Of a stretch of 45,607 nt of DNA, positions 23,346 through 45,189 are shown one piece after another. The notes under the pieces were generated by a model. It did not search any database. It saw nothing but the letters and a program-made list of their open reading frames with translations, and was not told the origin of the DNA. The DNA lies in IMG/VR virus record IMGVR_UViG_3300018432_000009, positions 1-45,607 of that record; one strand, given 5' to 3'. Made by a program: the position numbers and the translations under genes. The stretch is from a virus. Every line of letters starts with the position of its first letter. Positions within the stretch are counted from its first letter, which is position 1.

Positions 23346-23634
23346 CCTCGGCCCGCTGGCAACGGCGCTCCAGGGCGCCCTCGACGCCCGGGATGGCCGG
23401 ATCGACTGGTCCGGGGCGTACGACCACGGGCAGCCGCCCAGCGTCGAGCAGATCGCACGGAGCATGGCACCCCGTCTCGAGAAGCTGTTGGTGGAGATCA
23501 TCAACGACCTCGACGAGGAGGAGCCCTTCCTCGACGGCAAGATCGATGACGTCGACCTGTTCGACGCATCACCCCGCAACGTGGCCCGGCGCATCGTCGA
23601 GCGGTTGGCTGGGAAGGATCCGGCCGATGGCTGA
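23338..23634 (+). CDS. Hypothetical acidic protein
   Basis: A 98-residue acidic protein with a conserved-looking helical core ('SVEQIARSMAPRLEKLLVEI') and an Asp/Glu-rich loop. It overlaps the ATPase gene by 8 bp and probably works with it. No family recognised. Confidence 0.6.
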   Translation: MADLGPLATALQGALDARDGRIDWSGAYDHGQPPSVEQIARSMAPRLEKLLVEIINDLDEEEPFLDGKIDDVDLFDASPRNVARRIVERLAGKDPADG

Positions 23635-25375
23635 GCGCCGCCTCCGCATCTCCGACGACCTGGCGCTGCCGCTCGAGTTCGCCACCGAGGGGGTGGCGGT
23701 CATCGGCAAGCGCGGCAGCGGCAAGAGCAATACCGAGGCCCGCTTCGTCGAGCTGCTCTACGAGGCCGCGGTGCCGTTCGCCGTGGTCGACCCCAAGGGC
23801 GACTGGTACGGCATCAAGTCGTCCCGCGACGGCAAGACCCCCGGCCTGTCGGTGCCGGTGTTCGGCGGCCTGTACGGCGACTTCCCGCTCGACGAGCGGA
23901 CCGGTGCGCGGATCGCCGACCTGCTGGTCGACGAGATGCTGTCGGCCGTCCTCGACGTCTCACACCTGTCCAAGACCGGCGGCCTGCCGACCTTCCTCAC
24001 CGCGTTCTGCAACCAGCTCATGCACCGCCACCAGCTCGAGCCGCACGTCCGCACGGTCATCCTCGAGGAGGCCCATCGCTACATCCCGCAGAGCGTGACG
24101 GCCAAGTCGGCGGCGCTCAAGGAGGCTGCCGCTTCCCTCCTCCTGGAGGGGCGAGCGTTCGGCCTCGGCTGTTGGGCGGCCACCCAGCGCCCGGCGCGGC
24201 TCCACAAGGATGTCCTCGAAGAGGTCGGCACGGCGATCATTCACGCGATCGGCGTGAGCGCCACCAACGACAAGCGCACGATCGCCGGCTGGGTCGATCA
24301 CCACGACATGAGCAAAGAGATCGTGGACTCGCTGACCGTCCTGCGGCCAGGCGAGGCGTGGGTGCTCATCCCCCAGGACGGGCTCGTGAAGCGCGTGCAG
24401 ATGCAGCGTCGGACGACATTCGACTCGGCCGCGACGCCGAAGGTCGGCCAGGCCCCCCGCCGGCCGTCGACCATGGCTGACGTCGACCAGGCGGCCATCA
24501 CCCGCGCGCTCACCGACGTGATCGAGCGAGCGAAGCGTGACGACCCGAAGGAGCTGCAGAAGCGGATCGGCGAGCTCGAGCGCGAGCTGGCAGCCAAGCC
24601 GGCCGAGCAGGTCGTCCAGGAGATCGTCAAGGAGATCGAGGTCCCGGTCCTCAACGGCGAGGTCGAGACGCTGCTCGAGGTCGTTGGTCAGTTCCGGATG
24701 ATCGGCGAGAAGATCGCCGACGTCGGCGATCGGGTCGTTGCCGCGATCGACCGTGTCACCAACGCGAAGGCCGTGCCTGCCCGCTCCGCGCCGCCGGTGC
24801 GGCCGGTCGCCGATGTGCAGCGCCGCCCTGTGCCGGAATCGCGGCCGGCGCCCGTGCAGGCCGTCTCAGCGCCTCGGCCGACCGAGGGCGAGACCCGCCT
24901 CAAGGCCGGCGCGCGCCGGATGCTGGTGGCGCTGGCGCAGGTCCATCCGCGGCCGCTGTCACGTCAGCAGCTGAGCTTCCTGGCCGACGTCAAGATCGGC
25001 GGCACCTTCACCGATTACCTGCGCTCGATCGTCGAGGCCGGCTACGCCTTCGAGACCGGCGCCAAGGAGATCGCGCTCACCGACGCCGGCGTCGACCAGG
25101 TGCGCGACCAGGTCGGGGCCGGCGCGCCCGGCCGCGATGAGCTGATCGCCCTCTACTCGCCGCGGCTGAAGGCCGGCGCGCGGCGGATGCTCGAGGTCCT
25201 GCTCGATCGCCATCCGGACACGCTGGCGCGGGCCGAACTGTCCGAGCTGGCTGACGTGCGCATCGGCGGCACGTTCACCGACTACCTCCGCTCGCTGACC
25301 AGCAACCGGCTGGCGGCCGAGGACGTCGGCGGCATCGGACTCTCCGACGAGCTGTTCCTCGGGGAGGGCCGCTGA
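23627..25375 (+). CDS. HerA/DUF87-like ATPase with tandem winged-helix domains
   Basis: A 582-residue protein from ATG 23627. The first ~290 residues form a HerA-type P-loop ATPase: Walker A 'GKRGSGKS' (27-34), 'FAVVDPKGDWYGI', Walker B-type 'VILEEAHRYIP' (~143-153), and 'GCWAATQRPARLHKDV' as the sensor/arginine region. A coiled coil follows (~300-370), then two copies of a winged-helix unit starting 'LKAGARRML' (~425 and ~514), each with 'GGTFTDYLRS'. It is likely a DNA-translocating or DNA-remodelling motor. Confidence 0.75.
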   Translation: MAERRLRISDDLALPLEFATEGVAVIGKRGSGKSNTEARFVELLYEAAVPFAVVDPKGDWYGIKSSRDGKTPGLSVPVFGGLYGDFPLDERTGARIADLLVDEMLSAVLDVSHLSKTGGLPTFLTAFCNQLMHRHQLEPHVRTVILEEAHRYIPQSVTAKSAALKEAAASLLLEGRAFGLGCWAATQRPARLHKDVLEEVGTAIIHAIGVSATNDKRTIAGWVDHHDMSKEIVDSLTVLRPGEAWVLIPQDGLVKRVQMQRRTTFDSAATPKVGQAPRRPSTMADVDQAAITRALTDVIERAKRDDPKELQKRIGELERELAAKPAEQVVQEIVKEIEVPVLNGEVETLLEVVGQFRMIGEKIADVGDRVVAAIDRVTNAKAVPARSAPPVRPVADVQRRPVPESRPAPVQAVSAPRPTEGETRLKAGARRMLVALAQVHPRPLSRQQLSFLADVKIGGTFTDYLRSIVEAGYAFETGAKEIALTDAGVDQVRDQVGAGAPGRDELIALYSPRLKAGARRMLEVLLDRHPDTLARAELSELADVRIGGTFTDYLRSLTSNRLAAEDVGGIGLSDELFLGEGR

Positions 25376-27748: not shown

Positions 27749-28367
27749 GCATCCGCTGGCCGATCCCATTCGGCGTGGCACGGTCCGGCTGGCCCGGCTG
27801 CTGTTCGGCGATGACGGGCTGTTCGGGATGCCGCCCGCCGCCGAGCAGCCGGTGGCCGACGCCGCGGCCCCTCCAGCCCGTGACCAGTCCGAGGCCGAGC
27901 TCGACTCGCACGAAGCATTGCGCCGCAGCCCGTTGCACGAGTGCGGTGCGGACTGTCCGCTGCCGAGGTCGATGGTCGAGCGGTTCGATCGCTACGAGGT
28001 CGATGGTCTCAGCGCCGCCGAGATGCGACGCCGCGAGAACATGAACCCGGCGCCCGGCGACCGGCGGCCGCGCTCGGTGATCCGTGGCGACGGGTCGATG
28101 GTCGTCGTGCGCGACGTTGGGCGTGTCCCGAACATGGGCAGCGAGAACATCGAGTCGTTCCGGATCCCGCCGTGGGTAGTCGAGGCGATCCGGCCCGGAG
28201 GCCGGAACGAGGTCGAGCGGATGGCTCGCCTCGTCATCAGGGCCTACGTTCGCGGCTTCGGCGTCGGCCGCCACACCGAGGCACCGCCTAACCCGACGGC
28301 CGCCGTCGATGACCTTGTTCCGGGCGCTCGGTTGGGTCCGATCGACATCCCCGAGGCGCACCTGTGA
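27741..28367 (+). CDS. Hypothetical protein
   Basis: A 208-residue protein with an 8-bp overlap upstream. It has an Ala/Pro-rich linker, a Cys/His pair region ('PLHECGADCPLP'), a predicted helical unit ('MVERFDRYEVDGLSAAEMRR') and a C-terminal alpha/beta part ('PPWVVEAIRPGGRNEVERMA'). No family recognised. Confidence 0.55.
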   Translation: MPEHPLADPIRRGTVRLARLLFGDDGLFGMPPAAEQPVADAAAPPARDQSEAELDSHEALRRSPLHECGADCPLPRSMVERFDRYEVDGLSAAEMRRRENMNPAPGDRRPRSVIRGDGSMVVVRDVGRVPNMGSENIESFRIPPWVVEAIRPGGRNEVERMARLVIRAYVRGFGVGRHTEAPPNPTAAVDDLVPGARLGPIDIPEAHL

Positions 28368-28609
28368 TGGTCGAGCAGGATCCTGCGTCCCTCGCAGAGC
28401 TCGATGCTCAGCGAGACCAGGAGCCCACCACGGCGCCCGCCACGTCCACCGCCGACACCTGGGCGAACGAGCCGCTGACCCTGACGCGCGGCGAGCTGCG
28501 CGAGGGCATCGCCGCGGTCTTCTACCGTTCCATGCCGGCGTGGGACGCCGACGGCCAGGAGCGCATCGACCGCGCCACTGATCGCGTGCTCGAGGCGGTG
28601 GGGCGATGA
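28367..28609 (+). CDS. Hypothetical protein
   Basis: An 80-residue protein from ATG 28367 (TGATG overlap; GTG 28364 adds one residue). An acidic, disordered N-terminus leads to a helical domain ('TRGELREGIAAVFYRSMPAW'). Unknown function. Confidence 0.55.
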   Translation: MVEQDPASLAELDAQRDQEPTTAPATSTADTWANEPLTLTRGELREGIAAVFYRSMPAWDADGQERIDRATDRVLEAVGR

Positions 28610-28749
28610 GCAGCTCGCCGCATCGGTTCCGGAAGGGCGTCGAGCGCTGCCTGCACTGCGGCCTGACTCGTGCCGAGGCCCGCGCGCTGGCGGCGCTGTG
28701 GGCCCGCAAGAACGTGCAGACGCCCGCGCGGCCGACGGTGCCGCGATGA
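28606..28749 (+). CDS. Small basic protein with one Cys-His-Cys site
   Basis: A 47-residue product with ATGA overlaps at both ends. 'RCLHCGLTRAEARALAALWA' gives a C-x2-C pair then a helix. Many phages encode similar mini-proteins. Function unknown. Confidence 0.5.
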   Translation: MSSSPHRFRKGVERCLHCGLTRAEARALAALWARKNVQTPARPTVPR

Positions 28750-29219
28750 GCGATCGAGACTTCGTCGTCACGGGCCTCGTCGTGGCTGCGCTGGGAGTCC
28801 TGTTGCTCGTGACCGGCGATCCGGCCGGGGCGCTGATCTTGTGCGCCTCCACGACGCAGAGCCGCCACCCGTATCGACCAGACCCGCAGGCGCTGGCTGA
28901 CGCGTCGATGACGCCGGAGGCGGCGCTCCAGGTGCGCGTCGTGGGGCTGGCCCGGGCGCACGGCTGGACGGCCTATCACACCAACGACAGCCGGCGATCG
29001 GAGGCCGGCTTCCCCGACCTGGTGCTGGTGCGGCCGCCGCGGGTGTTGTTCGTGGAGCTCAAGGTCGGGCATCGCCAGCTGACGGTTGACCAGCAACGCT
29101 GGATGCGTTTGCTGGAGGGCTGCACCGAGGTCGGCGCCTTCGTCCTGCGCGGCCGCCTGGACGGCGTCGACGACCTGACCGGCTTCGAGGGCGTGCTGCG
29201 CCGGCGGGGTGCGGCGTGA
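28746..29219 (+). CDS. VRR-NUC domain nuclease with hydrophobic N-terminus
   Basis: A 157-residue protein from ATG 28746. The C-terminal ~100 residues are a VRR-NUC (PD-(D/E)XK) domain: 'YHTNDSRRSEAGFPDLVLVR' gives the catalytic Asp (~90), and 'VLFVELKVGHRQLTVDQQRW' gives E-x-K (~103-105), the helix and the Q. Such nucleases are often structure-specific for Holliday or flap junctions. Unusually the first ~40 residues contain a transmembrane-like helix ('GLVVAALGVLLLVTGDPAGA'). The ATG at 28911 (residue ~56) would give a soluble nuclease only, so the first part may be a separate fused membrane gene. Confidence 0.75.
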   Translation: MSDRDFVVTGLVVAALGVLLLVTGDPAGALILCASTTQSRHPYRPDPQALADASMTPEAALQVRVVGLARAHGWTAYHTNDSRRSEAGFPDLVLVRPPRVLFVELKVGHRQLTVDQQRWMRLLEGCTEVGAFVLRGRLDGVDDLTGFEGVLRRRGAA

Positions 29220-29404
29220 TGCTGATGCGCTACGGGCACCAGCTGCGCGAGGTCCCGCTCGACCGCGAGGCGGCCCGGGCCTGGGACCGGCTCCTTGCCG
29301 GCGGACCGTGCGCCTTCGGTGGCTGCCATGAGCCGGGTGCGCGGACGGTCCGCCGCTGGCGGCTCTGCGACCTGCATGCGACCAGGCTGGAGGCAGCGTC
29401 GTGA
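29219..29404 (+). CDS. Small zinc-finger-like protein
   Basis: A 61-residue protein from ATG 29219 (TGATG overlap). 'CAFGGCHEPGARTVRRWRLC' and a following Asp-Leu-His give C-x4-C-H ... C-x2-H, a pattern seen in many small zinc-binding proteins of actinophages. GTGA overlap with the next gene. Confidence 0.55.
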   Translation: MLMRYGHQLREVPLDREAARAWDRLLAGGPCAFGGCHEPGARTVRRWRLCDLHATRLEAAS

Positions 29405-29877
29405 ACCCCCGCCTCGCCATCCTCGGCTTGCTCGTTGGCTTCTGGCTGGGCGCGTACCTGGTGGCCGGCTGGACCGGCGTGGCAGTCATGGCCGTGGCCG
29501 GCGCGCTCGGCGAGCTGGTCCTCTTCCGGCACGCGGTGGCCGAGCTGGTCAGGGAGCGCGTCGCCGGCGTCGCCTTCACTGTCCAGGTCTGGCTGCTGCG
29601 GGCCTCGGTGCGCCGGCGGATCCGCCGCTACCAGCGCGAGCTCACCGAGATGCGCGAGGCCGAGCGGACCATTTCGCGGGGAATGGCCCCTGATCCGGCC
29701 GAGGTTCGGACGCGCCGCGGCCCGTGCCACACGCCCGGCTGCGGCCATCCGAAGCGGGCGCACGCCGAGCCGATCGGGCCGGACGGCCACTGCCAGGTCC
29801 TCGGCTGCCCGTGCATGGGTTGGGATCCGATGACCGCCGCGGAGTGGTCCGCGGTCTACGGCTGGCCGACGCGATGA
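29401..29877 (+). CDS. Membrane protein with C-terminal Cys-rich domain
   Basis: A 158-residue protein, GTG start in a GTGA overlap. Two hydrophobic helices (~5-23 and ~25-45, 'GVAVMAVAGALGELVLF') are followed by an amphipathic Arg-rich helix and a Cys/His-rich tail ('GPCHTPGCGHPKRAHA', 'CQVLGCPCMGWDP'), similar to the 'CxxxGCxHxxxxH' units in phage zinc proteins. The parS-like element 29671-29684 lies in codons 91-95. Function unknown. Confidence 0.55.
   Translation: MNPRLAILGLLVGFWLGAYLVAGWTGVAVMAVAGALGELVLFRHAVAELVRERVAGVAFTVQVWLLRASVRRRIRRYQRELTEMREAERTISRGMAPDPAEVRTRRGPCHTPGCGHPKRAHAEPIGPDGHCQVLGCPCMGWDPMTAAEWSAVYGWPTR
29671..29684. repeat. parS-like site 5
   Basis: ATTTCGCGGGGAAT; its reverse complement ATTCCCCGCGAAAT differs from site 4 only in the last base. 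Confidence 0.55.
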
Positions 29878-30059
29878 GCAGCTTCAGCTTCGTGTGCACC
29901 CACGCCCGGCCCGACGAGAACGGCGCTCACGACATCGACGACGCGATGAGCGCCGATCCACCCGTGCTCTTCTGTCGGCGCTGTGGGGAGGCGGTCAACC
30001 TCGCCGATGCGCTCGAGCAGACCGGCCGAAATCCCGACGGTCCGGGCGACAAGCGATGA
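29874..30059 (+). CDS. Small zinc-ribbon protein
   Basis: A 61-residue protein, ATGA overlaps on both sides. 'VCTHARPDENGAHD' and 'LFCRRCGEAVNLADAL' give a C ... H and C-x2-C pattern. Function unknown. Confidence 0.55.
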   Translation: MSSFSFVCTHARPDENGAHDIDDAMSADPPVLFCRRCGEAVNLADALEQTGRNPDGPGDKR

Positions 30060-30280
30060 GCGACACCCACGTGGCCAAGCCGAACCGTCGGCCGATCCGC
30101 GGCCTGGCCGAGCTGGTGAACGGTGGCACCTGCCCGCACTCGGGGAAGGTGCGCTACCTCGACGAGCGGACGGCGCAGCGCGCGCTGGCGCAGATCGCCG
30201 TGCAGGATCCCGAGCGCGATCGCCTCAGCACGTACCGCTGCCGCTGCGGTGACTGGCACGTGGGGCACCGCGACCGATGA
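30056..30280 (+). CDS. Small protein with C-x-C / H-x2-H motif
   Basis: A 74-residue basic protein, ATGA overlaps both ends. It contains 'CPHSGKVRYLDERTAQRALA' and ends 'YRCRCGDWHVGHRDR'. The 'C-P-x-S-G-K-x-x-Y ... A ... A ... Y-x-C ... C-x-x-W-H-x-[GT]-x' layout is a recurrent small phage zinc protein, function unknown. Confidence 0.6.
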   Translation: MSDTHVAKPNRRPIRGLAELVNGGTCPHSGKVRYLDERTAQRALAQIAVQDPERDRLSTYRCRCGDWHVGHRDR

Positions 30281-30480
30281 GCGACGACCTGCGCACCAAC
30301 CCGCTGCTGGTCGCCCTGGTCGACGTCGCCGCCGCGGTGGCCGAGCGGAAGCGTCGCGCCCGGACCGAGCGGCGGTCTACCATGCGGGTCGTTGGCCAGC
30401 CTGACGGAAGCGTGGAACCGCGCCGAGGCCATGAAGCCGCTCGAGTGGCGGATCATGGGCGTCGTGTGCGGTCCGCGTGA
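30277..30480 (+). CDS. Small basic hypothetical protein
   Basis: A 67-residue frame with an ATGA overlap upstream. The first ~38 residues look real (helix 'LLVALVDVAAAVAERKRRAR'), but the rest is Arg/Gly-rich and overlaps the next gene by about 50 bp, so the end may not be the natural one. Confidence 0.4.
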   Translation: MSDDLRTNPLLVALVDVAAAVAERKRRARTERRSTMRVVGQPDGSVEPRRGHEAARVADHGRRVRSA

Positions 30481-30634
30481 GGTCGATCCGATGATCCGAT
30501 TGGCGACGACCTGGGTGGCGTGGGCGCGCGGCCCGAACGCTGGGCTGGAGCGCGGCGAGGGCGAGAGCGCCATCCAGGCGCTGCTGGATCTGAGCAACAA
30601 GCTCGAGCGGTTGCGGAGCGACCCGAATGGCTGA
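30431..30634 (+). CDS. Small hypothetical protein
   Basis: A 67-residue protein from ATG 30431; a TTG at 30392 would add 13 residues ('MASLTEAWNRAEA'), which also look plausible. 'LATTWVAWARGPNA' and 'ALLDLSNKLERLR' suggest two helices. It overlaps the following gene by 8 bp. Function unknown. Confidence 0.45.
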   Translation: MKPLEWRIMGVVCGPREVDPMIRLATTWVAWARGPNAGLERGEGESAIQALLDLSNKLERLRSDPNG

Positions 30635-30815
30635 CACGCGCGGGATCCTGGACCTCGATCCGACCTGGTTCGACGAGCACCCGGAGGAGTGGCAGGGCGC
30701 TGTCGACGAGATCGCCTCGATGGGCACGACGGGCGAGGAGGCGGCAGCCGGCATGTACGCCATGGCAGCTGCTATCCGTGACGCGGTCGAGGCAACGGGC
30801 GGGGTGCTCCGATGA
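30627..30815 (+). CDS. Small acidic hypothetical protein, last of the early run
   Basis: A 62-residue protein, helical and acidic ('FDEHPEEWQGAVDEIASMGT'). It ends 5 bp before the stop of the convergent HicB-like gene, leaving no room for a terminator. Function unknown. Confidence 0.5.
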   Translation: MADTRGILDLDPTWFDEHPEEWQGAVDEIASMGTTGEEAAAGMYAMAAAIRDAVEATGGVLR

Positions 30816-30820
30816 CCAGG

Positions 30821-31369
30821 TCAGCCGGCCGCGCGATCCTCCGCCGGCGCTCTGGCCACGATCGCCATGTCGGGCCGGTCGGTCGCGCCGCGCAGGACGG
30901 CTTCCTCCATCTCGTCGAGGTCGAGCATCGGGATCGCGGCCTTGGCCAGCTGGCCGGCGCGCTGGAAGCTGATGCCCATCATGGCCCCGATGTCACGCAG
31001 CGAGTAGCCGTCGTCGACGAGCCGATGGACCGCGGCCGCGTTCACCGCGGCGGCCTGTCCCTGCAGGAGTTCCAGCTCGACCCGGCGCCGGCGGGCGCGC
31101 TCCACCAGCTCGCGCACCGGCTCCTCGAGCCTGGCCACGACGTGGACATCGAAGCTGGCCGGGTCGACGTCGAGCATCAGGGCGGTCACGTCGCGCGCCA
31201 TGTCCTCGGCCTGGTCGAGCCGGCGCACCTGGGTGAACACGCGCGGCAGGTCGTCGGCCTTGACCAGCCAGGCCGACCCGTCGCGTTCGGCGCTGAAGTG
31301 ATACAGCGGGCGGGCGGGAGCCGCCGCCGGATCCCGCTTGATCTCGCCCCACTTCTTGTGGCCGCTCAT
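30821..31369 (-). CDS. HicB-like antitoxin
   Basis: A 182-residue minus-strand protein. ATG 31369 has GGAGG five bases upstream; ATG 31384 is an alternative. The N-terminal ~75 residues ('LYHFSAERDGSAWLVKADDL' and on to 'FDVHVVARL') look like the HicB degraded RNase-H-like fold. The C-terminal region has an HTH ('GYSLRDIGAMMGISFQRAGQ'). It follows the HicA-like gene by a 2-bp gap or overlap, depending on start. HicB binds and blocks HicA and represses its own promoter. Longer than typical HicB (~100-150). Confidence 0.65.
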   Translation of the reverse strand: MSGHKKWGEIKRDPAAAPARPLYHFSAERDGSAWLVKADDLPRVFTQVRRLDQAEDMARDVTALMLDVDPASFDVHVVARLEEPVRELVERARRRRVELELLQGQAAAVNAAAVHRLVDDGYSLRDIGAMMGISFQRAGQLAKAAIPMLDLDEMEEAVLRGATDRPDMAIVARAPAEDRAAG

Positions 31370-31371
31370 CG

Positions 31372-31590
31372 TCACCTCCACCATCGCTTGCCGAGCTCCC
31401 CCTCCAGCGCCGCGAAGATCTCGAAGCTGACCTTCGGTCCGATGACCCTGTGGCGCGGGATCGGGAACGTCGTGTTGCCGAGCCTGAACTTGTCGTGGGG
31501 CCCGGTGCTGCCGATCAGATCGAAGTCCTTGCCGGCTTTGCGGGCTGCCTTCCGGATCTTCCGGATGAGGTCTTCTCGCTTGTGTTCCAT
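31372..31590 (-). CDS. HicA-like toxin (putative mRNA interferase)
   Basis: A 72-residue basic protein with the HicA dsRBD-like layout: a first helix ('KREDLIRKIRKAARKAG'), then 'IGSTGPHDKFRLGNTTFPIP' with the likely catalytic His at 32, then 'RHRV' and a last helix. HicA toxins cleave mRNA. Toxin first, antitoxin second is the usual order. ATG 31590 sits 6 bases after a -10 box, so its mRNA is probably leaderless. It may stabilise the prophage or act in phage exclusion. Confidence 0.65.
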   Translation of the reverse strand: MEHKREDLIRKIRKAARKAGKDFDLIGSTGPHDKFRLGNTTFPIPRHRVIGPKVSFEIFAALEGELGKRWWR

Positions 31591-31596
31591 GACCGT

Positions 31597-31626
31597 AGTC
31601 TACACCGCTAGACACCGTCAAGTCAA
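31597..31626 (-). promoter_or_regulatory. HicAB promoter with TAGAC boxes
   Basis: On the minus strand: -35 TTGACT (31626-31621), 18-bp spacer, -10 TAGACT (31602-31597), then 6 bases to ATG 31590. GTCTA (31598-31602) and TAGAC (31609-31613) form an inverted repeat over the -10 region. CTAGACA also recurs at 31608-31614 and 31632-31638. Likely the HicB autoregulation site. Confidence 0.6.
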
Positions 31627-31671
31627 GCCCACTAGACAGAACGGCGGTGCTGTCGCGCACCGGGTTCCAGC

Positions 31672-33171
31672 ATGACCCTGCCCCGCTCCCTCGACGACCT
31701 GCGAGGCCTCCGCGCCGCGCGCTGGATCCGCGAGTCGACGTCGGGCCAGTTCGACGCCTTCGGGCCCGACGCCCAGCGCGAGCAGCAGGACCGCGCCATC
31801 GAACGCTGCGGCCTCGTCGACACCGGGCTCGCCTGGCAGGTCGCGCACTCGGGGCGGACGGTCGGCTCGACGTCGCAGTTCGCCGAGATGATGGCGGCCG
31901 CCGGCGGGCAGTACGACGTCCTGGTGGTCGGCTACGTCAGCCGCTTCGCGCGTGATCTTCGGACGGCGGTCAACGCCCGCCACGACCTCCATCTCGCCGG
32001 CGCCGCGTTGCTCTTCGCCGACGAGCGGATTCTCAGCAGCGACGAGGAGTCATGGGATGCCTGGGCACGAGAGGCCGTCGAGGCCGAGAGCTACAGCCGG
32101 AAGCTCGCCAGACGGATCCGTGAAGGCTACGCTGCCAAGCGTCGTCGTTTGGGGGAGCCTGGAGGTCGGCCTCCGTTCGGCTTCGTGCGGACGGGGAAGC
32201 CACCAGCACTCGAGTGGAGCGGCGACCTGCGCGTGCGGCGCGTATTCGATCTCTCAGCGTCAGGGCAGAGTGATCGTCGGGTGGGGTCCGACGTCGGCCT
32301 ACCGCTCGATACCGTCCGCGGGATCCTGACCAACCCGATCTATGTCGGCCAGCTGCGCGACGGCACGCCGGCGGCGGTCGCTCCGGTCGTCGACGTCGCG
32401 ACCTGGGACGCGGTGCAGCGGATCCGCGCCAGCCGGCGTACGCGAGGCGGCAAGCCCGAGACGGTCCGCACCTACGCACTGCCGATGCTGCGCTGCGCGG
32501 CGTGTGATGCGCGGCTGATCGGCGACGTCGGTCGTTACCGGCACCGCAAGCCGTGCGCGGCGTTCACCGCGGCGCGCCGGCGGACCGCGTTCCGCAACCG
32601 CCTGGTGCGATCGCTGGGCACGTCGTACCCGCAGGAGCTGTACGAGGGCGCGCTCGGCGAGGCGCTCGTGAAGGCCGTGCTGCAGCCGGCCACCATGGTG
32701 GCCGCCGCCGAGATTCATCGCGCGGCCACGCCCGAGCCGGACCGGCTGGCACTGCGTCGTGTAACGGCTGAGCGCGATCGTGCCCTGACCCGTTACCGCC
32801 GCGATCGCGATGTCGTGGCGCTCGAGGCGACGATGGCCCGGCTGGATGCGCAGGAGTTATCACTTGTGAGCATCACATCTGACGAGCCGGCACCGTGGTC
32901 CGGAGTCGCGGACGAGCTGCGCGACCTGGTCGGGCTGTGGAGCCAGGCGGAGCCGGCCGAACGCCGGCGGATCGCTGAGCTGCTGTTCGCCGAGGTCCAC
33001 GCGCTGGGCTGTCGCGAGATGATCGCCACACCCTCCAGCCACGCGATTACACTCGGGGTGATGGATGGGGTTCAATCCGTGACTGTGGTCGGGGCGAGAG
33101 GGTTCGGCCCCGTCACCGTCACGTTCCGAACCCCACCCCGCACGCCGCTCCGTATCGCGAGGATCGCCTAG
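31672..33171 (+). CDS. int: Large serine integrase
   Basis: A 499-residue serine recombinase. The resolvase domain has 'ARWIRESTSGQFDAFGPDAQ' with catalytic Ser22 and 'GYVSRFARDLRTAVNARHDL'. The recombinase domain follows ('KLARRIREGYAAKRRRLGEP' and on), then a zinc ribbon start ('LRCAACDARLIGDVGRYRH') and a coiled coil (~360-440). It would integrate the phage by recombining attP with attB, and the gp3-like factor at 15455 would reverse that. The start ATG 31672 lies 81 bp from the HicA start on the other strand. attP was not identified with confidence. Confidence 0.9.
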   Translation: MTLPRSLDDLRGLRAARWIRESTSGQFDAFGPDAQREQQDRAIERCGLVDTGLAWQVAHSGRTVGSTSQFAEMMAAAGGQYDVLVVGYVSRFARDLRTAVNARHDLHLAGAALLFADERILSSDEESWDAWAREAVEAESYSRKLARRIREGYAAKRRRLGEPGGRPPFGFVRTGKPPALEWSGDLRVRRVFDLSASGQSDRRVGSDVGLPLDTVRGILTNPIYVGQLRDGTPAAVAPVVDVATWDAVQRIRASRRTRGGKPETVRTYALPMLRCAACDARLIGDVGRYRHRKPCAAFTAARRRTAFRNRLVRSLGTSYPQELYEGALGEALVKAVLQPATMVAAAEIHRAATPEPDRLALRRVTAERDRALTRYRRDRDVVALEATMARLDAQELSLVSITSDEPAPWSGVADELRDLVGLWSQAEPAERRRIAELLFAEVHALGCREMIATPSSHAITLGVMDGVQSVTVVGARGFGPVTVTFRTPPRTPLRIARIA

Positions 33172-33174
33172 CCC

Positions 33175-33516
33175 GTGACGTCGCGCTCGAGCTCCCGCCC
33201 TGGAGGCCAGACACCGCGCCATCGCCGCGGTGGTCGACTCTCCCCCACCAACGGGTCGGTGACGCGCGACGACATCGAAGCCATCCACGCCGAGTTCTTG
33301 CGAGGAACGACGGGTCTCTTCACGGGTGAGCAGCTCGACGCGATCACCGAGCACCTGGTCTACATCAAGGGCGCGATCGAGGACTACCGCCACCCGCCGG
33401 CGGCCCGTCGAAAGATGCGGCGCCGGTGGGAGGCGCGCAAGGCCCGGGCACCGCGTGAGGCGTCGTCGCGCGAGGCGCCGGCGATGCTGACTCCGAGGGC
33501 GACTGCCGCCGCGTAG
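33175..33516 (+). CDS. Small hypothetical protein after integrase
   Basis: A 113-residue frame from GTG 33175, 3 bp past the integrase stop; GTG 33259 would start at 'MTRDDIEAIHAEF' and skip a low-complexity Arg/Ser/Gly part. The core 'GEQLDAITEHLVYIKGAIED' is helical and the end is basic. A 7-bp inverted repeat (CACCGCG / CGCGGTG, 33212-33232) lies in the first part. Function unknown. Confidence 0.45.
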   Translation: MTSRSSSRPGGQTPRHRRGGRLSPTNGSVTRDDIEAIHAEFLRGTTGLFTGEQLDAITEHLVYIKGAIEDYRHPPAARRKMRRRWEARKARAPREASSREAPAMLTPRATAAA

Positions 33517-33519
33517 CGC

Positions 33520-33550
33520 ATACCGGGGGTATCGGGCTCGGCCATAGCCT
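33520..33550 (+). promoter_or_regulatory. Phage-specific promoter, copy A (palindrome plus -10)
   Basis: The palindrome ATACCGGGGGTAT (33520-33532) is followed after exactly 12 bp by TAGCCT (33545-33550) and after 7 more by ATG 33558. The same palindrome, spacing and start distance occur at 42251. No standard -35 box is present; the palindrome probably binds an activator or forms part of a non-standard -35. Confidence 0.65.
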
Positions 33551-33557
33551 GCCCGGC

Positions 33558-33593
33558 ATGCAGCGCTTGCTCCGTCCCCGATGCGCTCGGTAA
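33558..33593 (+). CDS. Possible 11-residue leader peptide
   Basis: ATG 33558 begins 7 bases after the -10 box of copy A and reads MQRLLRPRCAR then TAA, one base before the GTG of the next gene. If transcription begins at this ATG the leader would be translated first and the membrane gene reached by coupling, which fits the lack of a ribosome-binding site for that GTG. Confidence 0.35.
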   Translation: MQRLLRPRCAR

Positions 33594-33594
33594 C

Positions 33595-33906
33595 GTGCCC
33601 GACTGGTTCCTGCAGCTGCTCGAGGGACTCGGCAGCGCCGCAGGCTGGACCGTCGCCGTCGCCCTCCTGCTCCTCGTCCTCGCCGCCCTCGTCCATGGCG
33701 ATCTCGTGCCCGGCTGGATCCATAAGCGCGAGATCGCGCGCGGCGACAAGCTCGAGACGCGGCTAGATGCAGACACAGCCAAGACCGAGGCCGCCGCGGC
33801 TGCTACCGGCATTGCTCGCGACGCCGCACTCGCCGTCGTCACTGAGGTTCGCCGCATCCAGCTCGCAGCCCGCCGTGGCGATGGTGGTCCCGATGAATCC
33901 GATTGA
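33595..33906 (+). CDS. Membrane protein, first gene of the lysis/packaging operon
   Basis: A 103-residue protein, GTG start. An N-terminal hydrophobic helix ('GWTVAVALLLLVLAALVHG', ~17-35) is followed by a charged alanine-rich helical half with coiled-coil character. Size and layout are in keeping with a class III holin or spanin-like protein, but it could be any small membrane protein. It is placed four genes before the endolysin. Confidence 0.5.
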   Translation: MPDWFLQLLEGLGSAAGWTVAVALLLLVLAALVHGDLVPGWIHKREIARGDKLETRLDADTAKTEAAAAATGIARDAALAVVTEVRRIQLAARRGDGGPDESD

Positions 33907-34081
33907 GCGGCTCATCGCCTGGCTATCGGATCCGCGCGGCGATCGCCGGCGGGCGCAGGAGCGCCGGATCGCGTCGACCGATCACGTGATCCGCAAGCAC
34001 GACGCCGCCGAGCGTGTGGCCATGCGCCAGATCCGTCGGGCCCAGGAGGTCGTCGGACCCCTCGTCGAGCGGATGCACTGA
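33893..34081 (+). CDS. Small basic helical protein
   Basis: A 62-residue protein from ATG 33893, overlapping the previous gene by 14 bp. Arg-rich helical sequence ('DRRRAQERRIASTDHVIRKH'). Function unknown. Confidence 0.5.
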   Translation: MNPIERLIAWLSDPRGDRRRAQERRIASTDHVIRKHDAAERVAMRQIRRAQEVVGPLVERMH

Positions 34082-36333: not shown

Positions 36334-37203
36334 GTGACCACAAGCACTCGCACGCCCGCGCAGGCGGCAGGAGCCGGGGCTCGGGGCGGAGCCCCGGCAT
36401 CGCCGCACCCGTCGAAGTCGTCGTCGCAGCCAGGCGTCGCCGTCGAGCGAGAGACGTCGGGCGGCACCAAGCCGCGCAGCCGGACCAAAGCGGGTACCGG
36501 GTCGACGACTGCGGCCCTTGCCGCACGGAAGGCCCAGGTCGGCATCTTCAAGCCGCTGGTGCACTGCGGCGCGCACGTCCGGCAATGCCCGACCTGCTCC
36601 ACCCCGAAGAAGCCCGTCCACTGGAAGGGCTGCCCGCACGCGCATGACACGGCGGCCTGTCGAGACGGGGCGCACCTGTGCAAGCTCGGCAAGGGCTGGG
36701 GCACCGATCACGTCGGCTCCGGCCACTGCAAGCTGGCCGGCCACGGCGGCAGCTCGCCCAACGGGAAGCGCCATGCGGCCAAGGAGGCAGCCACGAAGGC
36801 GCTCGAGCGACTCGGCCAGCCGGCCGGATCCGGATCACCGCTGCAGCTGCTCGAGCAGGCGGTGCGCTACGCCCAGGGCAACCTCGAGGCCTCGGCGGCG
36901 CTGCTCGTCGAGATCGCCAAGGCCGATGGCCCGAAGGAGCCGGATCGCCTGGTCATCGACGCCGCGCGCGAGATCTTCACCGCGGCCATCCGGCTCGCCG
37001 GGCGGGTCGGCAAGGAGGCTGCCGACGCTCACATCGCCGAGCGGCGGGCGACGATCGACGAGATGATCGTCAGCCTGCTCGAGCGGGTCCTGCTGGCCGG
37101 CCTCGACGAGCTGGGGCTCAGCGACGACCAGCGGGAAACCGCGCTGTCACGTATGCACCGGGAGCTGGTTGCGGTACTGCCCGAACCATCCGAGCTCAGC
37201 TGA
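36334..37203 (+). CDS. Terminase small subunit-like protein with zinc motif
   Basis: A 289-residue protein, GTG start, upstream of terL. The N-terminal ~70 residues are disordered. Then 'CGAHVRQCPTCSTPKKPVHW' and the hallmark 'CKLGKGWGTDHVGSGHCKLA' followed by GHGG, a C-x-GWGTDH-x-G-x-G-x-CKL-x-GHGG motif typical of small terminases of this phage group. Helices follow for oligomerisation. It would bind the packaging site and hand DNA to the large subunit. The extra Cys pairs before the motif are unusual. Confidence 0.8.
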   Translation: MTTSTRTPAQAAGAGARGGAPASPHPSKSSSQPGVAVERETSGGTKPRSRTKAGTGSTTAALAARKAQVGIFKPLVHCGAHVRQCPTCSTPKKPVHWKGCPHAHDTAACRDGAHLCKLGKGWGTDHVGSGHCKLAGHGGSSPNGKRHAAKEAATKALERLGQPAGSGSPLQLLEQAVRYAQGNLEASAALLVEIAKADGPKEPDRLVIDAAREIFTAAIRLAGRVGKEAADAHIAERRATIDEMIVSLLERVLLAGLDELGLSDDQRETALSRMHRELVAVLPEPSELS

Positions 37204-38783
37204 TGGTCGTACCGGCCCTGAGCCCCGGCAGTGCGTCGATCGTCGAGCGCCTGGCCGCCCGCCTGGATCCAGCACCCAGCCCGTATACCGCCGATCCGGT
37301 CGGCTGGGTGCAGAACCGCCTCCTCGAGTTCATCTGGTCGAAGCAGCGCGCCATCCTCGAGTCGGTCGTTCGCAACCCGCGCACCGGCGTGCCGGCCTGC
37401 CACGACTCGGGCAAGAGCTTCATCGCGGCGCGCGCCGCGGCGTGGTGGCTCGACACCCATCGCGCCGGCGAGGCTTTTGTCGTCACCACGGCGCCGACCT
37501 TCAGCCAGGTGCGGGCGATCTTGTGGCGCGAGATCGGAAAGGCGCATCGCAAGGGCCAGCTCAGCGGCCGCGTCAACCAGACCGAGTGGCTGATCGATCG
37601 CACCGGCCGCCACTACACCTCGGCCGCGCCGCAGGAGGAGCTGGTGGCCATCGGCCGCAAGCCGTCCGAGTACGACCAGGCCGCCTTCCAGGGGATCCAC
37701 GCTCGCTACGTGCTGGTCATCATCGACGAGGCCGACGGCGTCGCCGGCGAGCTGTTCGACGCGGCCGAGACGCTGGCCACCAACGAGCACGCGCGGATCC
37801 TGGCCATCGGCAACCCGGTCGACCCGACGTCGGCCTTCGCCAGCGCCGTGCGGCTGCCGGCGACGATCGACCCTGACTCGGGGGCAGCCGACGAGTTCGA
37901 TTCGCCGTCGGGCTGGCACGTCGTCCGGATCGACGGATACGACACGCCGAACTTCACGAAGGAGCCGGTGCCCGACGAGCTGCGCGACATGCTCCTCTCG
38001 CCGGCGTGGGTCGAGTCGATGGTCACCAAGTTCGGCGCCGGCTCATCGTGGGTCGTCGGCCGGATCCGTGGCCGTCACCCGATCGACTCCGAGGACGGTG
38101 TGATCCCCGGCTCCAAGATCCGCGCCTGCCGCCACCTCGACGACGACGGCACCCCATTTCCCGCGGAAAGCCTGTGGGACGCGGAGCAGCTGCTGCCGAT
38201 CGAGCTCGGCGTCGACGTCGGCGCCGGCGGCGACCAGAGCGTGGTGCGCGAGCGGCGCGGGATCCGGACCGGCCGCGTCTGGCGGCAGCGATCGCCAGAC
38301 ACCATGGACCTGGTCGACCTAGTGCTGGCCGCGATCCTGGTCACCGGTGCCACGGCGGTCAAGATCGACACGGTCGGCATCGGCAAGGGCGCCGGTGATC
38401 GCCTCGAGCAGCTGCGCCGGCAGGGCCGCCACACCGCACGAATCATCCCGGTCAACGTCGGCGAGCGGGCGCTGGCGCCGGCCCAGTACGTCCGCCTGCG
38501 CGACCAGATCTGGTGGGAGGTCGGCCGCGGGCTGATCGAGGATGGGGCGCTCGACTTGTCCGAGCTCGACGAGGAGACGTTCACCGACCTCACCGCCCCG
38601 CGGCTGATGCCACCGGATGCAGCCAACCGGATCCAGGTCGAGCCCAAGAAGGAGACCCGCAAGCGCATCGGTCGATCGCCCGACGATGCCGACGCGTGGC
38701 TGCTCGCCTACCTCGCCATTCGCCCACAGCCCCAGGAGGGATACGTCGTGCACGACCAGCAGGTCCGAGTGAGCCCGTACTGA
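37203..38783 (+). CDS. terL: Terminase large subunit
   Basis: A 526-residue protein, ATG overlapping the previous TGA. The ATPase domain has Walker A-like 'ACHDSGKS' (~65-72) and Walker B 'VLVIIDEADGV' (~170-180). The nuclease domain begins 'IELGVDVGAGGDQSVV' (~332-347) and has a later Asp pair in 'SPDDADAWLLAYLA' (~492). It powers DNA packaging into the prohead and cuts the concatemer. The parS-like ATTTCCCGCGGAAA (38156-38169) lies in its coding sequence. Confidence 0.92.
   Translation: MVVPALSPGSASIVERLAARLDPAPSPYTADPVGWVQNRLLEFIWSKQRAILESVVRNPRTGVPACHDSGKSFIAARAAAWWLDTHRAGEAFVVTTAPTFSQVRAILWREIGKAHRKGQLSGRVNQTEWLIDRTGRHYTSAAPQEELVAIGRKPSEYDQAAFQGIHARYVLVIIDEADGVAGELFDAAETLATNEHARILAIGNPVDPTSAFASAVRLPATIDPDSGAADEFDSPSGWHVVRIDGYDTPNFTKEPVPDELRDMLLSPAWVESMVTKFGAGSSWVVGRIRGRHPIDSEDGVIPGSKIRACRHLDDDGTPFPAESLWDAEQLLPIELGVDVGAGGDQSVVRERRGIRTGRVWRQRSPDTMDLVDLVLAAILVTGATAVKIDTVGIGKGAGDRLEQLRRQGRHTARIIPVNVGERALAPAQYVRLRDQIWWEVGRGLIEDGALDLSELDEETFTDLTAPRLMPPDAANRIQVEPKKETRKRIGRSPDDADAWLLAYLAIRPQPQEGYVVHDQQVRVSPY
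38156..38169. repeat. parS-like site 6
   Basis: ATTTCCCGCGGAAA inside terL, in a third codon phase (encodes P-F-P-A-E). Confidence 0.55.
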
Positions 38784-43687: not shown

Positions 43688-44041
43688 GTGTCCAAGAACG
43701 AAGTCTTCGACGACGCCGACGACCTCTCCCTCGTAGCCACCGACCCGGCAACGCCGGCGTCGGGTGACCCGGTCCTCGTCGGGCAGATCCCGGGCGTTGC
43801 CCAGACCAACGAGCGGGCCGACGGCACGACCTCGATCACGATGAAGGGTGCCCACCGGCTGTCGGTCAAGGGCATCGACGGCAGCGGCAACGTCGCGGTG
43901 GCCGCCGGCGACATCCTCTACTACACCGCCGCCGACACGCCGAAGCTGTCGAAGAAGGCCACCGGCGTGCGCTTCGGCTACGCCCTCGCGGCCGTCGTTT
44001 CCGGGGCAACCACGACGATCCGCGTGAAGGTGGGCTACTGA
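43688..44041 (+). CDS. DUF2190-like capsid decoration protein
   Basis: A 117-residue beta-rich protein, GTG start, between protease and major capsid genes as usual for DUF2190/gpD-type head-stabilising proteins. 'RLSVKGIDGSGNVAVAAGDI' then 'LYYTAADTPKLSKKATGVRF' and 'GYALAAVVSGATTTIRVKVG' match the family pattern. TGATG overlap with the capsid gene. Confidence 0.8.
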   Translation: MSKNEVFDDADDLSLVATDPATPASGDPVLVGQIPGVAQTNERADGTTSITMKGAHRLSVKGIDGSGNVAVAAGDILYYTAADTPKLSKKATGVRFGYALAAVVSGATTTIRVKVGY

Positions 44042-45189
44042 TGGACATGCTCGAACTCCTCGACTCCATGCGTGCCCAGGAGGCCGACGTCTCGCGCCTC
44101 TTCGGCGGCGACGGTCGCTCCGTGCGCGGCCGCAAGGGGCCGCGCTACCACCAGCAGCTGCTCGAGGCCACGCGACTCGTCGCCGGCGTCATCAGCGGCC
44201 GGCGCAGCTTCCAGGTCTTCAAGGAGGCGATGTCGACCGACGACTTCCCCCTCCTGTTCGGAGACATCCTCGATCGACAGATGCTCGCGTCGTATCGCGA
44301 GGCGCCGTCGACCTACCAGCAGTGGGTGAAGATCAGCCGCAACGTGCCGGACTTCCGGAACGTCAAGCGCTTCGCCCTCGAGGGCGGCGACAGCACCCTC
44401 GACGAAGTGCCCCAGCTGACCGAGTACCCGCAGACCTCGCTCGACGAGGCCAAGTACGAGTACGCGGTCAAGAAGTACGGTCGCCGGATCGACTTCAGCT
44501 GGGAGGCGCAGGTCAATCAGGACGTCGACTTCCTGCGCGAGATCCCGAACATCCTCGGCCGCGCTGCCCGGCGCACCGAGCGCAAGTTCGCCTCGGGGCT
44601 GCGACTCGACGTCAACGGCCCCCACGCCAGCCTCTACACGGTGGGCTTCGGCAACATCGTGACCGGCAACCCGGTGCTGTCGGTGGCGGCCCTCGAGACG
44701 GCGCTCAACCTGCTCCGCAACCAGACCGACGCCGGCGGCGAGCCGATCGTCTTCGAGGAAGCGGTCCTGGTCGTTCCGCCGGCGCTCGAGATCACGGCCA
44801 ACCGGATCATCGAGACGACCGAGTACCGGACGGTGGTCGGCGGCATCACCCAGATCATCAAGGGCACCGGCCTCGGCGGGCGGCTCTCGGTGGCGGTGGA
44901 TCCGTACCAGCCGATAGTGGCCAGCACGGCCAACGGGGCGACCACCTGGGCGGTCTTCGCCAGCCCGACCGACGGGCGGCCGGCGCTCGAGATGGGCTTC
45001 CTGGCCGGCCACAACGAGCCCGAGATCCGGCTGAAGAGCCCGAACTCGCAGCGCGTGGGTGGCGGTGACGTCAACCCGCTGGACGGTGACTTCGACACCG
45101 ACGGCGTGGCCTACCGCGTCCGCCACGTCCTGGGCGGCACCCGGATCGACCCGAACGCGACCGTCGCGTCCAACGGATCGGGGTCCTGA
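44041..45189 (+). CDS. Major capsid protein (HK97-fold, Mu gpT-like)
   Basis: A 382-residue protein, ATG overlapping the previous TGA. Sequence features of the encapsulin/Mu-type capsid group include 'LLFGDILDRQMLASYREAPS', 'DEAKYEYAVKKYGRRIDFSW', a bent-helix region 'NPVLSVAALETALNLLRNQT', and a P-domain strand 'EAVLVVPPALEITANRII'. It lacks a long N-terminal delta domain, in keeping with a separate scaffold. Confidence 0.88.
   Translation: MDMLELLDSMRAQEADVSRLFGGDGRSVRGRKGPRYHQQLLEATRLVAGVISGRRSFQVFKEAMSTDDFPLLFGDILDRQMLASYREAPSTYQQWVKISRNVPDFRNVKRFALEGGDSTLDEVPQLTEYPQTSLDEAKYEYAVKKYGRRIDFSWEAQVNQDVDFLREIPNILGRAARRTERKFASGLRLDVNGPHASLYTVGFGNIVTGNPVLSVAALETALNLLRNQTDAGGEPIVFEEAVLVVPPALEITANRIIETTEYRTVVGGITQIIKGTGLGGRLSVAVDPYQPIVASTANGATTWAVFASPTDGRPALEMGFLAGHNEPEIRLKSPNSQRVGGGDVNPLDGDFDTDGVAYRVRHVLGGTRIDPNATVASNGSGS

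What the first reader, a model, noticed from the sequence alone, without database searches (positions are those of the whole stretch)
30821..31671. HicAB-like module next to the integrase with a leaderless promoter and TAGAC boxes
Toxin and antitoxin face away from the integrase; the 81-bp gap holds a TTGACT-18-TAGACT promoter with ATG 6 bases on, and three TAGAC/GTCTA boxes. The same gap precedes int, so HicB binding may also control integrase. The antitoxin is longer than usual.
Basis: partly seen in the sequence, partly recalled or inferred. Interest (0 to 1): 0.52.

Follow-up and report, generated by a model that had tools for sequence, protein, structure and literature searches.

The report
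Phage HicAB toxin-antitoxin with conserved operator-promoter
A bacterial virus, probably of Chloroflexota, carries a HicAB-type toxin-antitoxin pair whose switch, two matching repeats lying over the promoter of a toxin gene that seems to start right at its own RNA start, is also found in front of distant relatives of the pair in other phages and bacteria.

Summary
In detail: hicA (72 aa) and hicB (182 aa) lie divergently beside a serine integrase, with an 81-bp gap holding TTGACT-18-TAGACT and ATG 6 nt on. The three boxes are better read as four half-sites forming two operators, TGTCTA-N6-TTGACT and TGTCTA-N6-TAGACT, whose right halves are the -35 and -10 hexamers. Fold predictions, the invariant toxin histidine and PHROG profiles make this a HicAB module with a helix-turn-helix antitoxin. 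The same operator-on-promoter layout precedes relatives' hicA in 22 of 27 design and 12 of 23 held-out representatives (p<=0.01 each); the two operators' spacings match within a locus and their letters covary. So the leaderless-type, probably HicB-autoregulated promoter is a family trait. hicB has a strong Shine-Dalgarno; hicA has none. Integrase control is not supported: 0 of 49 related integrase loci have hicAB beside them, and the closest lacks it, with the usual small gene directly upstream of int. HicAB is inserted cargo. The antitoxin's length is ordinary for its kind. A known kind of system; the conserved operator-promoter was not found described in the open-access searches made.

The parts
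31372..31590 (-). hicA-like toxin gene, 72 aa, ATG start, in-frame stop TAG 12 nt upstream
   Evidence: phrog_353 toxin 4e-7, Pfam HicA_toxin sub-threshold; AF2 pLDDT 94, HicA chains Z 6.2-7.4; His32 invariant 29 of 29
30821..31369 (-). hicB-like antitoxin gene, 182 aa: N-terminal HicB domain (about 20-84), long helix, C-terminal helix-turn-helix (about 121-143), tail predicted with low confidence
   Evidence: phrog_8245 HicB-like antitoxin 4.4e-20; AF2 pLDDT 86; VIA matches
31621..31638 (-). distal operator: TGTCTA-N6-TTGACT; right half is the -35 hexamer
31597..31614 (-). proximal operator: TGTCTA-N6-TAGACT; right half is the -10 hexamer
31597..31626 (-). promoter TTGACT-18-TAGACT, expected RNA start at or next to the A of the hicA ATG (31590)
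   Evidence: only promoter-like site in 28000-34000; TAGACT begins 12 nt before ATG in most relatives; no RNA data
31370..31382 (-). Shine-Dalgarno of hicB (GGAGGTGA) inside the end of hicA
   Evidence: duplex energy -10.6 against -3.0 kcal/mol for hicA
31672..33171 (+). large serine integrase, 499 aa; neighbour, not part of the module
   Evidence: Resolvase 4.1e-12, phrog_95 integrase 1.4e-31; relatives in 22 of 400 Chloroflexota genomes
30415..31668 (.). stretch absent from the closest relative L148: two small ORFs, hicB, hicA and most of the gap
   Evidence: local alignments end at 30414 and resume at 31669; adjacent in L148 at 1496/1497

Best explanation
This is a type II HicAB toxin-antitoxin module carried as inserted cargo by a phage with an integrase, probably of a Chloroflexota host. 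The hicA-hicB mRNA starts at or next to the A of the hicA ATG, so the toxin is translated from a leaderless start, while HicB is translated from a Shine-Dalgarno start inside the end of hicA. HicB neutralises HicA with its N-terminal domain, and through its C-terminal helix-turn-helix binds two spaced palindromes whose right halves are the -35 and -10 hexamers, which shuts off its own promoter. Free HicA would be an RNA-cleaving toxin acting through His32, set free when HicB is lost (prophage loss, stress, infection). Shown here by computation: gene pair, folds, histidine, operator layout and its conservation, Shine-Dalgarno contrast, absence of the module from related integrase loci. Inferred: the leaderless RNA start, HicB binding, repression, toxicity, neutralisation and biological role.
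For: PHROG profiles; predicted folds and closest solved chains; catalytic-type His invariant in 29 of 29 and aligned with His31 of the proven phage toxin Adephagia gp91, 36% identity over 69 residues; hicA directly before hicB in 45 of 73 loci, window included and its copy L001 left out; operator-promoter layout in 22 of 27 design and 12 of 23 held-out representatives and in 3 of 4 further viral loci; equal spacing of the two operators in 19 of 22 and 11 of 12; covarying half-sites; strong Shine-Dalgarno only for hicB.
Against: Pfam HicA_toxin stays below its cut-off and NCBIfam gives nothing. Foldseek finds no match at E <= 0.001 and all VIA Z are under 8. 11 of 23 held-out regions fail the layout test, 5 of 27 design regions fail, and one Olsenella/Atopobiaceae group lacks the layout. 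hicA was not found next to hicB in 28 of 73 loci by my ORF and profile limits. No expression, binding or toxicity data.
Confidence: 0.85

Rival explanations
1. One reading: HicB bound to the gap is a two-way switch that represses both hicAB and the divergent integrase, tying integration to the state of the toxin-antitoxin pair.
For: The operators lie 34-75 bp upstream of the int ATG and are palindromic, so bound HicB could block a promoter or read-through in that direction.
Against: No promoter-like site on the + strand in the gap. Layout identical where no such integrase is near. 0 of 49 related integrase loci carry hicAB; L148 shows int joined to an upstream gene without it.
Confidence: 0.08
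2. The boxes belong to the integrase: they are part of attP or of an int regulator site, and lie before hicA by accident.
For: The gap lies next to int, where attP commonly sits (recalled), and holds a further perfect 6-6-6 palindrome at 31645-31662.
Against: The boxes keep their place before hicA in relatives from two phyla without this integrase; they fall within the stretch absent from L148.
Confidence: 0.02
3. The pair is no longer a toxin-antitoxin system: HicB has become a plain self-limiting phage regulator and HicA is an inactive or non-toxic RNA-binding remnant.
For: HicA lies below the Pfam cut-off and is 23-41% identical to its aligned relatives; several phage genomes annotate only one partner nearby.
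Against: Histidine, G38 and P45-R46-H47 of the family are kept; both frames intact; the gene pair and its promoter are conserved together.
Confidence: 0.05

Closest known systems
Adephagia gp91/gp90 HicAB-like system of a mycobacteriophage (PMC11373665, passages read)
   Same: Phage-borne pair; HicA 36% identical over 69 residues with the same histidine; toxicity and neutralisation shown there; a leaderless transcript is predicted there for gp90
   Different: There the antitoxin is first, 65 aa and without a DNA-binding domain, and each gene has its own promoter; here the toxin is first and HicB is 182 aa with a helix-turn-helix
HicA/HicB-like pairs of Gordonia phages Santhid and Jojo24
   Same: Same gene order, HicB of 197 and 194 aa, leaderless-type promoter with the same operators
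   Different: Operator spacing 7 instead of 6 (for Santhid); no integrase beside the pair; HicA 29% identical
Yersinia pestis HicA3-HicB3 (PMC11594946, passages read)
   Same: Two inverted-repeat operators at the hicA promoter, the main one over the -10
   Different: Its HicB has a ribbon-helix-helix domain and the two genes are 174 bp apart; here both hexamers are built into operators, the genes nearly touch, and hicB has a helix-turn-helix
Escherichia coli HicAB and class 3 of the Gerdes classification (PMC10865869, PMC11594946, passages read)
   Same: hicA-hicB operon with an HTH antitoxin and operator-based autoregulation
   Different: E. coli has a second promoter whose transcript yields antitoxin only; here one promoter is seen and the contrast is leaderless toxin against Shine-Dalgarno-led antitoxin

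Membership tests
HicA toxin | small dsRBD-like fold | tested here: met
   AF2 pLDDT 94; 1whz Z 7.7 and HicA chains 6g26_F 7.4, 5yrz_B 7.0, 6hpb_A 6.6, 4p78_C 6.2, 4c26 4.5
HicA toxin | conserved catalytic histidine | tested here: met
   His32 invariant in 29 of 29 aligned; aligned with Adephagia gp91 His31
HicA toxin | match to a family profile | tested here: inconclusive
   phrog_353 'toxin' 4e-7; Pfam HicA_toxin 15.2 bits against a cut-off of 27; NCBIfam none
HicA toxin | toxic RNase activity | not testable with these tools
   needs expression
HicB antitoxin | N-terminal partial RNase H fold | tested here: met
   strand-strand-strand-helix-strand in AF2; 1wv8 Z 7.6 and HicB chains Z 5.2-5.8; all Z under 8; phrog_8245 4.4e-20
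[quoted passage not shown]
   helices 124-131 and 135-143; DeoR operator-binding domain 7bhy_C Z 6.8, rmsd 1.7 over 47
HicB antitoxin | neutralises cognate HicA | not testable with these tools
   needs co-expression; no complex was modelled
HicAB module | hicA followed closely by hicB in one operon | tested here: met
   2 bases between the hicA stop and the hicB ATG; pair adjacent in 45 of 73 loci
HicAB module | HicB binds palindromic operators at its promoter | tested here: inconclusive
   operators inferred from conservation, equal spacing and covariation; no binding data
Leaderless gene | -10 just before the start codon and no Shine-Dalgarno | tested here: met
   TAGACT begins 12 nt before ATG; duplex energy -3.0 kcal/mol
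Leaderless gene | RNA 5' end at the start codon | not testable with these tools
   needs 5'-end mapping

The most novel reading that the evidence does not exclude
In a HicAB family spanning Actinomycetota, Chloroflexota and their phages, one mRNA carries a leaderless toxin and a Shine-Dalgarno-led antitoxin, so that the toxin:antitoxin ratio is set by the mode of translation initiation and any block of Shine-Dalgarno initiation tips the balance to toxin. The paired operators evolve as matched sets together with the HicB recognition helix: S-N-Q-R with GCCTA, S-H-Q-R mostly with GGCTA, other residues with GT[C/A].
Probability: 0.2. Interest if true: 0.6.

Novelty: new member of a known kind. 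Interest (0 to 1): 0.4.

Why it matters
It turns one unnamed phage module into a family-level prediction that can be tested directly: operators laid over both the -35 and the -10 of a leaderless-type toxin promoter, matched spacing, and a few recognition-helix residues that seem to go with operator letters. If right, it suggests how toxin-first HicAB operons without a second promoter could keep antitoxin in excess. It also warns against reading integrase control into a shared gap.

Tried and rejected
Single-protein scans of viral contigs with HicB, HicA and the integrase found no confirmed relative; alignments did. phmmer against PDB gave only designed proteins at chance level for HicB and nothing for HicA. 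Global enrichment of TAGAC in the window: none. No tRNA in the window. A + strand promoter for int in the gap: none by the scan. Shared regulation of int: rejected as unsupported. A strict one-to-one code between recognition helix and half-site: rejected, because L031 and L109 carry S-H-Q-R with GTC half-sites. The association is hand-scored on 31 loci (30 of the 34 representatives with p<=0.01, plus L050 with p 0.045; L024, L036, L082, L121 left out) and is not corrected for kinship.

Rows dropped before counts: one search left out L001 (copy of the window) and L017, L021, L022, L035 (truncated or doubtful hicA); one search kept 27 representatives of 41 upstream regions; one search dropped 4 copies of design loci and 3 near-copies from 30, leaving 23. 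Start codons were chosen by rule from profile matches and some may be wrong. For L183 I used a start 9 nt inside the ORF and it failed (0.364 of shuffles as good); with the ORF start the TAGACT lies 13 nt upstream, by eye only. In one search the hicB start with the best Shine-Dalgarno was picked first, which favours hicB; the last start before the domain gives 30 of 33.

Papers: PMC11594946, PMC10865869 and PMC11373665 were read as passages found by terms; PMC3898074, PMC8485053, PMC7319586 and all others were seen only in search listings with the start of the abstract. That the operator-promoter was not found in print rests on searches of the open-access library only. That attP often sits beside int, and that HicA toxins cleave RNA, are recalled or from those passages.

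Full report
What is there. The window is an IMG/VR virus record of 45607 bases with tape measure, terminase, portal, head and ParB-like genes. hicA (31590-31372) and hicB (31369-30821) run leftward; the large serine integrase (31672-33171) runs rightward. A stop codon inside the -10 hexamer closes the hicA frame upstream, so the ATG at 31590 is the first possible start.

The proteins. HicB matches phrog_8245 HicB-like antitoxin (4.4e-20) and HicA matches phrog_353 toxin (4e-7). Pfam HicA_toxin is reached only below its cut-off, 15.2 of 27 bits, and NCBIfam gives nothing for either. With 47 aligned HicB and 29 aligned HicA, AF2 gives mean pLDDT 86 and 94. The HicA model is closest to 1whz (Z 7.7) and to HicA chains (Z 6.2-7.4, with an NMR model at 4.5). 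The HicB model pairs a HicB-type N-domain (1wv8 Z 7.6, HicB chains 5.2-5.8) with a helix-turn-helix like the operator-binding domain of DeoR (Z 6.8). Foldseek's own E-values were weak, none at 0.001 or below, and all Z are below 8, so the folds are read together with the sequence evidence. The HicA histidine is invariant in 29 of 29 and aligns with His31 of Adephagia gp91, a toxin shown in M. smegmatis to be neutralised by gp90 (PMC11373665, passages).

The operator-promoter. TTGACT-18-TAGACT is the only promoter-like site in 28000-34000. The gap holds two 18-nt repeats 24 nt apart, each TGTCTA-N6-TWGACT on the hicA strand, so that their right halves are the -35 and the -10. Relatives of HicB were fetched from viral contigs (11 loci), genome contigs (56 loci) and phage records, and the 90 bases before their hicA were read. 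A rule, [AGTMWA N4-9 TWGACT] twice at limited distances from the start codon, was met with p<=0.01 against 200 dinucleotide shuffles each in 22 of 27 non-redundant regions. Because the rule was drawn from these, it was frozen and applied to loci found later in 400 Chloroflexota and 396 Actinomycetota genomes: 12 of 23 non-redundant regions pass. Of the 11 that fail, 8 (L088, L089, L090, L094, L110, L117, L122, L123) have a weak, truncated or doubtful hicA call; L113 and L120 reach p 0.03 and 0.035; L105 fails outright, like the Olsenella/Atopobiaceae group of the design set. Three of four further viral loci pass. In the window 0 of 3000 shuffles match the gap, and no start-like triplet elsewhere comes near.

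Two features that a chance cluster would not give. First, the inner spacing of the two operators agrees within a locus: 19 of 22 design and 11 of 12 held-out loci that pass, with 5/5, 7/7 and 8/8 as well as 6/6 (values). Second, the letters move together: GTCTA here, GCCTA in L020 and L076, GGCTA in L077 and L079-L082. The residue after the serine of the recognition helix goes with them (N with GCC in 3 of 3 against 0 of 28; H with GGC in 5 of 7 against 0 of 24; 31 hand-scored loci, kinship not corrected), with L031 and L109 as exceptions.

Translation. The hicB start has GGAGG 5 nt upstream, duplex energy -10.6 kcal/mol, against -3.0 for hicA. Over 33 passing loci hicB reaches -4 or stronger in 30 at the last start before the domain, and hicA in 12; several of those 12 owe it to G-runs in the operator spacer, upstream of the expected RNA start (inference). 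A leaderless toxin and a Shine-Dalgarno-led antitoxin on one mRNA is therefore the expected arrangement. M. tuberculosis toxin-antitoxin transcripts are reported as predominantly leaderless (PMC8485053, start of abstract in a listing).

The integrase. Relatives of the integrase occur in 22 of 400 Chloroflexota genomes at E<=1e-30 and in 0 of 392 Actinomycetota genomes (the tool notes that an empty answer without a positive control shows nothing). This points to a Chloroflexota host. In 20 genome loci (up to about 1.5 kb of flank) and 29 viral loci (up to 4 kb, some cut by contig ends) none carries hicAB near int; L174 and L178 show only weak matches to the HTH part. In the closest, L148, whose first 154 integrase residues are 92% identical, a small gene leads straight into int. 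The window has its homologue at 30277 and then 1254 extra bases with two small ORFs and hicAB before int. A small ORF of this sort ends near the int start in at least 21 of 48 integrase loci by a crude motif that misses L148 itself. HicAB is thus cargo placed between int and its usual upstream gene. Nothing shows that HicB controls int, and nothing excludes it.

Verdict. A HicAB module with an HTH antitoxin (class 3 of Gerdes, PMC10865869, passages), whose two promoter hexamers are built into two presumed HicB operators. Two operators, one over the -10, are known for Y. pestis HicB3 (PMC11594946, passages). The leaderless, double-hexamer arrangement conserved over two phyla was not met in the searches made.

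Noticed in passing
window 30277-30480 (+); L148 1372-1470 and other integrase loci L134-L182: A small, unnamed gene (core like DPLVxALAxAIREIAxRR) ends at or overlaps the start of related serine integrases in at least 21 of 48 loci; no PHROG match for the window copy. A candidate partner of the integrase, perhaps a directionality or regulatory factor.
   Followed up: partly
window 31645-31662: Perfect 6-6-6 inverted repeat CGGTGC-TGTCGC-GCACCG ending 9 nt before the int ATG; an attP arm, an RNA hairpin or chance.
   Followed up: no
window 30392-30634 and 30627-30815 (+): Two small ORFs inside the stretch absent from L148, with no PHROG match and no match in the other loci held.
   Followed up: partly
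window 3701-6523 and 44041-45186: Tail genes lie at the left end and major head genes at the right end, as if the record were a permuted, nearly whole genome though classed linear.
   Followed up: no
window 23393-25375 and 36678-38783: Two separate ORFs match terminase large subunit families (phrog_2666 3.8e-15; phrog_2 1.7e-23); the first may be a helicase-like ATPase instead.
   Followed up: no
L025 5010-5522 (+) and 5895-6338 (-): One Chloroflexi contig carries two hicB-like genes of this family facing each other about 370 bp apart.
   Followed up: no
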